This document shows positions 6,633-63,408 of a stretch of DNA of 64,000 bases, one piece after another. Both the position numbers and the translations under genes were made by a program. How positions within the stretch are numbered: position 1 is the stretch's first letter; every line of letters begins with the position of its first letter. The notes beneath the pieces were generated by a model. It was not told the DNA's origin and ran no database searches. It saw nothing but the letters and a program-made list of their open reading frames with translations. Origin of the DNA: Anaerolineae bacterium (GTDB lineage Bacteria; Chloroflexota; Anaerolineae; Aggregatilineales; Phototrophicaceae); contig JAHDWN010000018.1 in the NCBI GenBank assembly GCA_023382675.1, positions 1-64,000 of the forward strand. The letters are read 5' to 3'.

Positions 6633-6806
6633 TTAGCGAGCGAGAACTGGCTGCGGCGCGCGCTGTTCGTCTCTGACCTCATGATCACGCGGGGTCTCAT
6701 GCATAGGAACCGGGCGCGTCTGCAAGGTGATTTCGCCGTTCTCGAAGCGCATACCTTCTAAACGATAACGCTGTGGTTTGATACGCCAGTGACGTGAAAT
6801 TTGCAT
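6633..6806 (-). CDS. 57-residue protein resembling the N-terminal arm of DUF35 proteins
   Basis: A short frame from the ATG at 6806-6804 (AGAGG about 12 nt upstream) to TAA at 6635-6633. The first residues, MQISRHWRIKPQRYRLEG, look like the helical start of DUF35 proteins (typically xIxRHWRxKxxRYxLxG), but the following CxxC knuckles are replaced by MRFENGEITLQTRPV, a cysteine-free beta-hairpin-like sequence, and a polar tail. It sits 15 nt upstream of the separate OB-fold gene, so a one-gene protein appears to have been split, or rebuilt as two subunits. The frame could alternatively be a decayed N terminus. Coding status is inferred from the similarity and the tight spacing. Confidence 0.55.
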   Translation of the reverse strand: MQISRHWRIKPQRYRLEGMRFENGEITLQTRPVPMHETPRDHEVRDEQRAPQPVLAR

Positions 6807-61192: not shown

Positions 61193-62824
61193 ATGAATTT
61201 TAGAATGACACCGCCCAAGCTCAAGCAACTCTTCATCAGCTACCGCAGCAGTGACGCTGCCAAGGTGGACAAGATCGCTCGCGATCTGGCGCTGCTCAAG
61301 TATGACGATGGGACGCCGCGCTACGGCACCTGGCAGGACAAGCACAACCTGCCGCCTGCCAGCCCGAACTGGTGGGATGCGATTGTCGATGCCATCATCG
61401 ACTGCGACATGTTCGTGATGAATATTTCGCGTGCCAGCCTGCAAAGCGAAGTCTGCCGGGCGGAATTGGACTACGCGCACAAACGCAACCGCCCGATCAT
61501 CCCGGTGATACTCGACGGAGAATTCTTCCTCGATCCAAAGTCGGGCAAATACGATCTGCCGAAAGAGACCTGGGCGCTCGTGCCGGATTGGTTAGGCGAG
61601 AGTCAATTCCTGTTTTATGCCGGAACAGAATTCTACGGTCGCTTTCAACAGGCGGTCGAAGGCTTCGAGCGCCACTGGCCGCGTGACATCAGCGCTCCGC
61701 GCCCGCTGAACCCGGACAGCAGGAGCGTGCATGGCAGCAACCATGCCCTGTATGATGCGGCCTGCGACTATGCCGAACGCCTGGCTTTTGCCGATGCCGA
61801 GAAGCACTTTGACGCGCTGGTGCGCCGGAATGATGAGGATTACGGCGATTGGGCAGCACAATGGCTTGAACTGATACGCCGGTATGCCGAACTCGTCGAG
61901 ATCAGTGAACGACGTATTCCTACCCCGATCTTCAACAAGAGATGGGCGAGCTATACAGCCCTATACCCCAAAGAATTCCTGGACGGCATCTTCGATCCTA
62001 AGCGCTTTGCCACGCACGGTGCCAAACCTGCTTCGCCTCCCGTCGTGACTGCTGTGCCCGTTGTGACGACACCTGCGACGCCATCTCCCTCCGCTCTCCC
62101 AGCGCAGCGTTCTGGGGCTGGGGTGAGGGCAAATCCTCGCAGCGTTGACCTCCTGCCTGCGCCCTTTGCCTGGATTGAAATCCCGAAGAAGGGCTACAGC
62201 ATTGCCAAATACCCGGTGACCAATGCGCAGTTCGCCAAGTTCATTGAAGCGGGCGGCTACCGCGAGAAGCAGTGGTGGACAGAGGCGGGGTGGAAACAGC
62301 GCAGCAACGACAAGTGGACAGAGCCGCGTTTCTGGAACGACAGCAAATGGAACGGCGAGGAACAGCCGGTCGTGGGCGTGAGTTGGTATGAGGCGGTGGC
62401 CTTCTGCCTATGGTTGAGTGAGGTGACCGGTGAAAAGATCATGCTGCCGACTGAAGACCAGGGGCAGTACGCGGCGCAGGGCGATGATGGGCGCGACTAT
62501 CCCTGGGGCAAGCAGTGGGATGCCAGCCGCTGCAACAACAATGTAGACGGGAAAGGGATCGGCAAAACCACGCCGGTGCAGCAGTATGAAGGCAAAGGCG
62601 ACAGCCCGTTTGGAGTTGTGGATATGGCAGGCAATGTGTGGGAATGGTGCTTGACCGATTATGACAATAAGACTAATGATATTAATAGTAATGCGACGCT
62701 TCGCGTGCTGCGCGGCGGGTCGTGGAACGACCTCAGTTCCGTCATCTTCCGCTGCGACCTCCGCCTCAGGAACTTTCCGCTTCTCAGGAACCTTAACCTC
62801 GGGTTTCGCCTCGCCCACTCTTAA
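61193..62824 (+). CDS. TIR-domain protein with C-terminal FGE-sulfatase/C-type-lectin fold; likely DGR target
   Basis: 543 residues in three parts. The TIR domain (about 10-140) begins LKQLFISYRSSDAAKVDKIA and includes MFVMNISRASLQSEVCRAEL. A helical middle (about 150-270) leads to a Thr/Pro/Ala linker. The FGE-sulfatase/C-type-lectin domain (about 318-543) has AWIEIPKKGYSIAKYPVTNAQF, EEQPVVGVSWYEAVAFCLWLSEVTGE, DYPWGKQWDASRCNN, GVVDMAGNVWEWC and RVLRGGSW-to-GFRL. The single Cys in the last part and lack of the FGE cysteine pair argue against sulfatase activation, so this is a binding fold. The C-terminal ~30 residues match a retroelement-diversified variable region (see 62726-62812). The start is uncertain between Met at 61193 and 61205. 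Confidence 0.9.
   Translation: MNFRMTPPKLKQLFISYRSSDAAKVDKIARDLALLKYDDGTPRYGTWQDKHNLPPASPNWWDAIVDAIIDCDMFVMNISRASLQSEVCRAELDYAHKRNRPIIPVILDGEFFLDPKSGKYDLPKETWALVPDWLGESQFLFYAGTEFYGRFQQAVEGFERHWPRDISAPRPLNPDSRSVHGSNHALYDAACDYAERLAFADAEKHFDALVRRNDEDYGDWAAQWLELIRRYAELVEISERRIPTPIFNKRWASYTALYPKEFLDGIFDPKRFATHGAKPASPPVVTAVPVVTTPATPSPSALPAQRSGAGVRANPRSVDLLPAPFAWIEIPKKGYSIAKYPVTNAQFAKFIEAGGYREKQWWTEAGWKQRSNDKWTEPRFWNDSKWNGEEQPVVGVSWYEAVAFCLWLSEVTGEKIMLPTEDQGQYAAQGDDGRDYPWGKQWDASRCNNNVDGKGIGKTTPVQQYEGKGDSPFGVVDMAGNVWEWCLTDYDNKTNDINSNATLRVLRGGSWNDLSSVIFRCDLRLRNFPLLRNLNLGFRLAHS
62726..62812 (+). other. Candidate DGR variable region (VR)
   Basis: From just after GGSW (Trp codon 62723-62725) to GFRL. 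All Leu codons in this stretch are CTC or CTT (62732, 62759, 62765, 62780, 62783, 62792, 62798, 62810), whereas CTG dominates elsewhere in the genome. They sit where FGE-like relatives usually have Asn (AAC/AAT). Phe is TTC or TTT and Asp is GAC. This is the codon signature of adenine-specific mutagenesis of AAY codons copied from a template repeat. Arg, Gly and Pro anchor positions (CGC, AGG, CCG, GGG) are kept. Confidence 0.72.
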
Positions 62825-62875
62825 TATTCTGGTTACTGGTTTTTCCTGTATTCTGAATTCTGTTTTTCTGGCGCG
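62822..62875 (+). promoter_or_regulatory. Candidate post-VR homing-associated sequence
   Basis: After the TAA comes a T-rich stretch with repeated ATTCTG (about 62825-62868: ATTCTGGTTACTGG, ATTCTGAATTCTG, TTTTTCTGG), then GGCGCGAACGGAGTG. In known DGRs an initiation-of-mutagenic-homing sequence and a hairpin lie just behind the VR. This could serve that role, but the match is by position only. Confidence 0.3.
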
Positions 62876-62928
62876 AACGGAGTGAGTGACCAGCCGCGCG
62901 CAGCAGGCGGCCACAGCTTGAAGATTCC

Positions 62929-63408
62929 TCACCCGGCCAACGCCGCCTCCAGCCGGCGGATGTGCTCGGCGGCGCGGGTGCGGCGCGCATCCTCCGGCGC
63001 GAGGTCGAGAAAGCGGCGGAAATCGTCAATCGCGCGCTGGCGTGTCGCGTTCGATCCATCGGGCGCGCTGGCGTAAAGCAGCCCGCGCTGGTAATACGCT
63101 TCGGCAGCGTCGGGATCGAGTTCGAGGGCGTGGTCGAAATCCGCCAGGGCGCGATCCCACTCGTAGACCAGCAGCAGCAGCCTGCCGCGCTCAATGTGCA
63201 GCGCCGGATCATCCGGTGCGCGCGCGATCGCAGCGTCCAGCTCGCCGAGCGTGCGCGTCGGCTCAGACGGTGGGGTTGGTGCAGGCAACGTGTCCGCTGC
63301 GAGGCGAATCAGCGCGAGTCCAATGACTATCGCCGCGATCAGCATCAGCGCGAGCCATCCGGTGCGGGGTCTACGCATGTCTACAGGGTGATCCTTGTCG
63401 TGTTCCAT
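62929..63408 (-). CDS. Membrane-anchored TPR protein
   Basis: About 159 residues. A short basic N terminus, one membrane segment (GWLALMLIAAIVIGLALIRLA), a Pro/Thr-rich linker, then TPR helices: LGELDAAIARAPDDPALHIERGRLLLLVYEWDRALADFDHALELDPDAAEAYYQRG and a second pair ending in DDFRRFLDLAPEDARRTRAA. It is probably a periplasmic-side or cytoplasmic scaffold. The ATG at 63408 was chosen, with a GTG two codons upstream as alternative. It is divergent to the LysM gene. Confidence 0.75.
   Translation of the reverse strand: MEHDKDHPVDMRRPRTGWLALMLIAAIVIGLALIRLAADTLPAPTPPSEPTRTLGELDAAIARAPDDPALHIERGRLLLLVYEWDRALADFDHALELDPDAAEAYYQRGLLYASAPDGSNATRQRAIDDFRRFLDLAPEDARRTRAAEHIRRLEAALAG

What the first reader, a model, noticed from the sequence alone, without database searches (positions are those of the whole stretch)
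62702..62824. Adenine-mutagenised codon pattern in the TIR protein C terminus: a diversity-generating retroelement target
After RVLRGGSW the frame keeps the Arg/Gly/Pro scaffold of FGE-type lectin domains but replaces the usual Asn run with Leu, Phe, Asp, Val, Ile and Ser. Every one of the eight leucines is CTC or CTT, and Phe and Asp codons also end in C or T, although the genome strongly prefers CTG. AAY-to-NNY substitution by a retroelement explains this at once, and ordinary drift does not. Known DGR variable regions lie at exactly this place of this fold.
Basis: partly seen in the sequence, partly recalled or inferred. Interest (0 to 1): 0.92.

Follow-up and report, generated by a model that had tools for sequence, protein, structure and literature searches.

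The report
Self-rewriting TIR sensor, writer missing
The end of this bacterial immune-like protein looks as if it was recently rewritten by a mutation-making retroelement, but the enzyme and template that do the rewriting are absent from the assembled genome; a short repeat just after the gene also follows most such rewritten genes examined in its relatives.

Summary
The gene 61193-62824 encodes TIR + FGE/C-type lectin; its last ~110 nt (62702-62812) are a variable region (VR) of the diversity-generating-retroelement (DGR) kind. Codon use alone is weak evidence; relatives are strong. Homologues sit beside a DGR reverse transcriptase and template; in G029 all 25 VR/TR mismatches lie at template adenines. 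Against its closest held VR (sister species G002) the window differs at 23/34 template-A sites but 4/77 others; third codon positions, 49% different upstream in the domain, differ at 3/36 inside the VR. Copying from near-identical templates predicts this; drift does not. No DGR RT (the only RT is retron-like) and no template was found in the own 110-contig, 96.5%-complete assembly. So: a recently rewritten DGR target whose writer is unbinned, unassembled or lost. Possibly new: an array of ~7-8-nt units ending in CTG follows the stop codon (62825-62870). Such arrays follow 24 of 29 VRs in RT-bearing loci and 0 of 29 templates, and none of 7 other FGE genes of this genome: a candidate recipient mark. 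TIR-lectin DGR targets are known; the array did not turn up in my paper searches.

The parts
61193..62824 (+). 543-aa target gene: TIR - middle region - FGE/C-type-lectin domain with C-terminal VR
   Evidence: ORF; Pfam TIR_2 E 4e-15 and FGE-sulfatase E 5e-47
61232..61519 (+). TIR domain (aa 14-109); Glu91 at 61463-61465 in QSEVCRAEL sits where TIR NADases have the catalytic Glu (position recalled, not from a call)
   Evidence: E91 invariant in the 5 aligned proteins
62162..62815 (+). FGE-sulfatase / C-type-lectin-fold domain (aa 324-541); no CxxxxC pair
   Evidence: model pLDDT mostly above 90 over about 320-543; TvpA 2y3c Z 23.6, Mtd 1yu3 Z 13.6
62702..62812 (+). variable region (VR) as compared base by base with relatives' templates; core 62726-62800
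62825..62870 (+). array of 6 units ending in CTG (T[TAC]CTG at 62827, 62834, 62844, 62851, 62858, 62866), starting directly after the TAA stop: candidate recipient mark
62871..62930 (+). place where many relatives have a GC-rich 3-nt-loop hairpin; none found here (no perfect stem of 5 bp or more; fold of the flank z -0.25)

Best explanation
The gene makes a one-chain sensor-effector: an N-terminal TIR domain and a C-terminal FGE-type C-type-lectin domain whose tip is written by a diversity-generating retroelement. The RT of such an element copies a ~110-nt Asn-codon-rich template RNA, misreads its adenines, and the cDNA replaces the 3' end of the target gene, so AAY codons become NNY codons while the scaffold stays. 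Shown: the sequence anatomy; homology to targets in intact cassettes; a difference from the closest VR almost confined to template-A sites, with third-position divergence falling inside the VR, so the VR was overwritten from a template close to that of the sister species; a CTG array after the stop like those after most DGR recipients examined. Inferred: the writer acts, or recently acted, in trans from a cassette not in this assembly (unbinned contig, plasmid, phage or the missing few percent); the array is part of the recipient site; binding of a variable ligand switches on the TIR domain.
For: (1) Relatives' homologues lie beside a DGR-type RT (IGNLTSQ or IGNQTSQ; YVDD or FIDD) and a template; G029:C201 VR/TR 114 nt with 25 mismatches, all at TR adenines. 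(2) In G016 one TR explains four VRs on three contigs with 0/77 non-A mismatches each, so trans-targeting exists in this family. (3) Window against G002 VR, the closest of 44 distinct same-length segments held (4/77 non-A differences, next 11/77): 23/34 at TR-A sites against 4/77 elsewhere, p 8e-12; third positions at non-A sites 3/36 against 88/180 upstream, p 1.7e-6; clpX third positions 112/428. (4) The same inversion occurs between G016 VRs that share a TR, and is absent against G013a and in the FGE pair L051/L052. (5) CTG array of 4 or more units: 24/29 VR flanks, 0/29 TR flanks, p 2e-11 by an unpaired test; window 6; seven other own FGE genes 1-2. (6) The FGE domain matches Treponema variable protein TvpA by sequence and model.
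Against: No DGR RT and no template found in the own assembly. Mismatches of the window VR to six relatives' templates include 14-20 non-A sites of 75-79, mostly third positions; and the A/non-A test against a relative's TR is not specific: four other FGE domains of the same genome give p 0.002-0.06. The map of A sites is a relative's template, not the window's own. The 3' hairpin found in 14 of 19 cassette loci is not found here. No read-level variation could be examined.
Confidence: 0.9

Rival explanations
1. Orphaned relic: the VR was written by a DGR that this lineage has since lost; the tip is now frozen and the sensor has a fixed specificity. (It shares the origin of the VR with the best explanation and differs only on the present.)
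For: No RT or TR found in the assembly; no canonical hairpin after the array; VRs that look decayed exist in G013 and G016.
Against: Decay shows: against G013a third-position differences stay at 11-13/20 through the VR, and G016's two decayed VRs have 21 and 27 of 77 non-A mismatches to their genome's TR and 2 and 0 strict array units. The window VR is fresh by third positions and keeps six units. But G013c shows a partial fall (4-5/20) with no array, so freshness and array do not always go together.
Confidence: 0.35
2. No DGR at all: an ordinary fast-evolving ligand-binding loop of an FGE/lectin domain with chance codon bias.
For: The codon signal alone is modest; another own FGE domain reaches 23/26 C/T-ending codons; four other own FGE domains also differ from a relative's template more at A sites than elsewhere (p 0.002-0.06).
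Against: Positive selection on the protein does not explain third positions several times less diverged exactly where first and second positions are most diverged; the pair L051/L052 stays at 6-11/20 in its last windows, no such fall; CTG array.
Confidence: 0.03
3. Gene conversion between paralogues or horizontal exchange of the 3' end, without reverse transcription, homogenised the segment.
For: Would explain low third-position divergence between the window and the G002 gene, which showed no shared flanking DNA.
Against: Conversion copies all bases alike; here 23 of the 27 differences lie at template-A sites, which are 34 of 111 positions.
Confidence: 0.04
4. The CTG array is not a homing site but a terminator-linked or translation signal inherited with these genes.
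For: In several relatives it is followed by a GC hairpin and a T run; in many cassettes it lies just before the RT gene. 5 of 29 VR flanks have fewer than 4 units.
Against: Present after targets with no RT seen beside them (window, G002, G016 C76 and C160), below 4 units after all 29 templates, and 2 or fewer units in the two decayed VRs of G016.
Confidence: 0.4

Closest known systems
DGR targets of cyanobacteria, including remote variable proteins with C-terminal CLec domains (PMC7517822, passages read)
   Same: C-terminal CLec domain, VR near the 3' end, N-terminal signalling domains including TIR-like, targets far from the RT
   Different: There the 76 remote targets were tied to a TR of the same genome (more than 50% identity); here no TR is found in the assembly; the phylum differs
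Thiohalocapsa PB-PSB1 DGRs (PMC10907252, passages read)
   Same: Effector domains incl. TIR joined to VR-bearing CLec domains (DGR 2 target: CHAT + TIR); incomplete loci, some diversified in trans; for DGR 7 the RT and TR were found only in strain variants; FGE named as a subtype of CLec folds; proposed antigen sensors
   Different: There matching RTs and TRs were found for most loci, in the genome or in strain variants; here none. No CTG array mentioned in the passages read
DGR cassettes of G016:C13 and G029:C201 (same family as the window's genome, unnamed)
   Same: FGE/CLec target with the same VR scaffold and a CTG array (6 and 5 units)
   Different: They hold RT and TR; the window does not
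Treponema denticola variable protein TvpA (2y3c)
   Same: FGE-like CLec fold of a variable protein; E 9e-8 by sequence, Z 23.6 by model
   Different: Not a TIR fusion and a surface protein (both recalled)
Bordetella phage BPP-1 DGR (PMC3240598, passages read; stretch L031)
   Same: An element directly 3' of VR is needed for efficient homing
   Different: There it is a hairpin with a 4-nt GRNA loop; no T[TAC]CTG array of 3 or more units in L031; Mtd fold match only Z 13.6

Membership tests
DGR (complete system) | DGR-type reverse transcriptase in the genome | tested here: inconclusive
   None found: one RVT_1 hit, a retron-type RT with TIR; 0 hits with a DGR RT query. Assembly 96.5% complete, 110 contigs
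DGR (complete system) | Template repeat in the same genome, matching the VR except at template adenines | tested here: inconclusive
   DNA searches with the VR and with a hypothetical template find no second copy; same limit of the assembly
DGR target (variable protein) | VR at the 3' end of a CLec/FGE-fold gene | tested here: met
DGR target (variable protein) | Variation concentrated at template-adenine positions | tested here: met
   Against the G002 VR 23/34 A sites, 4/77 others, with the G016 TR as map because the own TR is unknown
DGR target (variable protein) | Recent rewriting (supporting, not defining): third positions homogenised inside the VR | tested here: met
   3/36 against 88/180; sliding profile
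DGR target (variable protein) | GC-rich short-loop hairpin 3' of the VR (typical, not defining) | tested here: not met
   No perfect stem of 5 bp or more with a 3-5-nt loop in the 60 nt after the array; 14 of 19 loci with TR after RT have one, 5 do not
DGR target (variable protein) | Variation among reads of the population | not testable with these tools
   no reads held
DGR (complete system) | Accessory protein Avd | not tested
   no search made
Formylglycine-generating enzyme | Cys pair of the active site (CxxxxC after RGGSW/Y; motif recalled) | tested here: not met
   The window has one Cys there (FRCD); rows such as L231 and L225 read SYLCHDSYC and SYLCHLSYC
TIR domain | Pfam TIR_2 match above cut-off | tested here: met
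   56.7 bits against a cut-off of 28

The most novel reading that the evidence does not exclude
Cellular DGRs of Anaerolineae mark their recipient genes with a 7-8-nt-periodic array of units ending in CTG directly after the VR stop codon; the array, not nearness to the RT, licenses rewriting in trans. It lets DGR recipients be recognised from sequence when RT and TR are missing, as in this window, where a cassette outside the binned chromosome (for example on a plasmid) rewrites a chromosomal TIR sensor.
Probability: 0.35. Interest if true: 0.75.

Novelty: new member of a known kind. Interest (0 to 1): 0.55.

Why it matters
A bacterial TIR protein with a machine-diversified sensor tip is a candidate adaptive-immunity-like receptor in one chain. 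The window shows that such receptors can be overlooked because the writer is not in the assembly, and offers two ways to find them without RT or TR: the inversion of third-position against first/second-position divergence between close VRs, and the 3' CTG array. How DGRs other than the BPP-1 prototype choose their recipients is, as far as I know, open; the array makes it testable by deletion.

Tried and rejected
Codon bias as sole proof: rejected, another own FGE domain matches it. A/non-A enrichment against a relative's template as proof: rejected as non-specific (four own controls). Own retron RT as the writer: rejected; best PADLOC model RT-TIR_XII and a QGAPTSP motif. Syntenic orthology of the tip: within the stretches compared (13 kb of G002, 17 and 6 kb of G013, against window 40001-64000 only) nothing but the FGE gene aligned. 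First, narrow array motif (T[TAC]CTG): it seemed restricted to cassettes with TR after RT (13/19 against 0/10), but reading the flanks showed CTCTG and CGCTG units in both groups, so I widened the unit to CTG for after seeing the data; that choice is post hoc. Exceptions kept in view: 5 of 29 VR flanks below 4 units (L115, L117, L118, L121, L306); G013c with a partial fall of third-position divergence but no array; own L024 with 3 units at 7-8-nt steps, not scored; own L019 and L027 not scored. Viral contigs: 9 DGR-RT-like loci at 25-44% identity, no T[TAC]CTG arrays of 3 units or more. The L102 stretch folded was misplaced and is not used. Families missing from the fold list are not excluded; the TIR half of the model has low confidence and was not interpreted or searched alone. 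An Avd search and a metagenome-contig search were not made.

Papers on the array: the listings and passages of PMC3240598, PMC10907252 and PMC6642488 showed no such array; the TAACTGA heptamers of PMC4679880 (outline with abstract, term search) are a different repeat, in one genome mostly just upstream of start codons.

Full report
What is there. The window is contig C18:1-64000 of a 6.42-Mb, 110-contig genome (96.5% complete). The nearest named homologues of the gene are in Anaerolineae and Aggregatilineales MAGs. The ORF 61193-62824 encodes a TIR_2 domain and an FGE-sulfatase domain. An AlphaFold2 model is confident over the FGE part (pLDDT mostly above 90 from about residue 320) and poor over the rest; it matches EgtB (Z 25.5), Treponema variable protein TvpA (Z 23.6), formylglycine-generating enzymes (Z about 21-22) and Mtd of phage BPP-1 (Z 13.6). 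It has no CxxxxC pair, so it is not expected to be a catalytic FGE (inference; motif recalled; compare L231 and L225).

The observation. Leu codons after the Trp are CTC/CTT in 8 of 8 against 11 of 32 before (p 0.001); C/T-ending codons 22 of 25 against 287 of 518 (p 7e-4). Phe and Asp codons always end in C or T, so that remark carries nothing, and L026 of the same genome reaches 23 of 26. Composition alone is weak.

Own genome. RVT_1 finds one reverse transcriptase, on contig C27. It has a C-terminal TIR-like part and a QGAPTSP motif; its best PADLOC model is RT-TIR_XII, E 2e-136, and its best NCBIfam model the TIR-domain anti-phage (retron) RT with 403 bits, under the cut-off of 600. I take it as a retron-type RT, not a DGR RT. 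A DGR RT query has no hit in this genome. The VR and a hypothetical template find no second copy.

Relatives. 58 of 61 genomes searched, the own included, have a match to the protein at E <= 1e-20, many by the FGE domain alone. At G029:C201, G029:C23 and G016:C13 such a gene sits beside an RT with DGR motifs. In G029:C201 the VR and a downstream Asn-rich template align over 114 nt with 25 mismatches, all at template adenines; at G029:C23 the match breaks near its 3' end. In G016:C13 VR and TR agree at 77/77 non-A positions with 18/34 A positions changed, and the same TR fits three further VRs, two on C160 and one on C76, again with 0/77 non-A mismatches; two other VRs of G016 are decayed (21 and 27 of 77). 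So one template fits several scattered genes. The window VR aligns without gaps with these templates. Its non-A mismatches to six relatives' templates are 14-20 of 75-79, mostly third positions. That test is not specific: four other FGE domains of the own genome give p 0.002-0.06, though with 27-37 non-A mismatches.

The decisive comparison. Of 44 distinct same-length segments held, the VR of G002:C49 is closest at non-A sites (4/77; next 11/77). G002 is a sister species (ClpX 95% identical; third positions 112/428 different). No DGR RT was recognised in it: its one RVT_1 hit (E 3.5e-16) lies in a 900-aa frame and matches the DGR RT query only at 33% identity, E 2e-9; I did not read its motifs. 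The two FGE domains differ at 88/180 third positions upstream of the VR. Inside the VR, third positions at non-A sites differ at 3/36 (p 1.7e-6; against clpX p 0.015), while A sites at codon positions 1-2 differ at 23/33 against 53/360 upstream (p 4e-11). Over all positions the difference is 23/34 at A sites and 4/77 elsewhere (p 8e-12). Sliding windows show the crossing at the VR start; the same crossing appears between G016 VRs that share one TR; against G013c and G029:C201 it is partial (third positions 4-5 and 7-8 of 20), against G013a absent (11-13 of 20), and absent in the FGE pair L051/L052, whose genomes gave no DGR RT hit. I conclude that the window VR was overwritten by a DGR since, or not long before, the split from G002.

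Where is the writer? In the class-wide search 80 of 396 genomes have an RT of this kind at E <= 1e-60, the own genome none. Of 14 DGR RTs of closer relatives whose contig length I had, 9 lie within 2.5 kb of a contig end (no baseline was taken), so such loci often sit where assemblies break. Related RTs occur on plasmids of Fischerella, Nostoc, Ideonella and Prosthecochloris (40-50% identity). Loss, an unbinned contig and a plasmid are all open.

A cis feature. Directly after the stop codon lie six T[TAC]CTG units (62827-62870). With that strict motif, 24 unique arrays of four or more units occur in 3.83 Mb (both strands, redundant, loci fetched mainly around FGE, RT and clpX genes, so enriched for such genes); all 24 start -19 to +15 nt from the stop of a VR-type ORF, and one first-order Markov simulation of the same loci gives none. 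With the wider unit CTG at 6-10-nt steps, chosen after seeing the flanks, four or more units follow 24 of 29 VR-type ends and 0 of 29 TRs in 41 RT loci (the others lacked a recognisable VR or TR end; the L115 target was read on the other strand by hand; p 2e-11, unpaired). The window has 6, seven scored other own FGE genes 1-2, random 110-mers of the held loci 4 or more in 125 of 20000. Where VR and own TR could be compared at one length (15 of 17 loci tried), non-A mismatches were 0-3, so these are genuine DGR targets. In G016 the four fresh VRs have 5-6 strict units, the two decayed ones 2 and 0; G013c is an exception, with a partial fall but no array. An Acidobacteria MAG carries two such arrays (L168); BPP-1, four plasmid loci and nine viral loci show no strict array of 3 or more units. 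In 14 of 19 loci with TR after RT a GC hairpin with a 3-nt loop lies within 60 nt of the last unit, roughly in the place of the BPP-1 hairpin (4-nt loop) needed for homing (PMC3240598, passages read); none was found in the window, which may weaken it as a recipient.

How it most likely works. A DGR cassette copies its template RNA with errors at adenines; the cDNA replaces the 3' end of genes that carry a matching VR and, I propose, the 3' recipient mark. The diversified lectin tip samples ligands and the TIR domain is the effector. Rewriting is supported by data; recipient-mark function, TIR catalysis and ligand sensing are inference. TIR-linked CLec targets and trans-diversification are already reported (PMC7517822, PMC10907252, passages read), and a large metagenome survey states that it would not detect remote targets (PMC8144416, passages read), so the gene is a new member of a known kind; the array is the part I could not find described and the passages read.

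Noticed in passing
L030:7879-9360 (G000:C27, minus strand): The genome's only RVT_1 hit is a retron-type RT with a C-terminal TIR-like part (PADLOC RT-TIR_XII E 2e-136; NCBIfam NF042941 403 bits, below its 600 cut-off).
   Followed up: partly
G016 contigs C13, C160, C76, C5 (L119, L095, L099, L098): One template repeat fits four variable regions on three contigs with no non-A mismatch, beside two decayed paralogues with 2 and 0 array units.
   Followed up: yes
L168:3791-3825 and 6761-6795: An Acidobacteria MAG carries two T[TAC]CTG arrays after FGE genes, so the element is not confined to Chloroflexota.
   Followed up: partly
L296 (Nostoc plasmid pn2), after both FGE genes: Both FGE genes beside this DGR RT are followed by a pyrimidine-rich stretch with repeated CCCTTTA-like units (seen by eye), perhaps a counterpart of the CTG array.
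   Followed up: no
L298 (Prosthecochloris aestuarii plasmid pPAES01): A DGR RT with Avd and two FGE genes sits on a plasmid typed as conjugative.
   Followed up: no
RT tree of 40 Anaerolineae DGR RTs (L312 left out): RTs with the template after the RT (19) and with the template before it (10) fall on different sides of the midpoint-rooted tree (split support 81/97); array units are mostly TTCTG in the first and CTCTG or CGCTG in the second, with mixtures in L116 and L258.
   Followed up: partly
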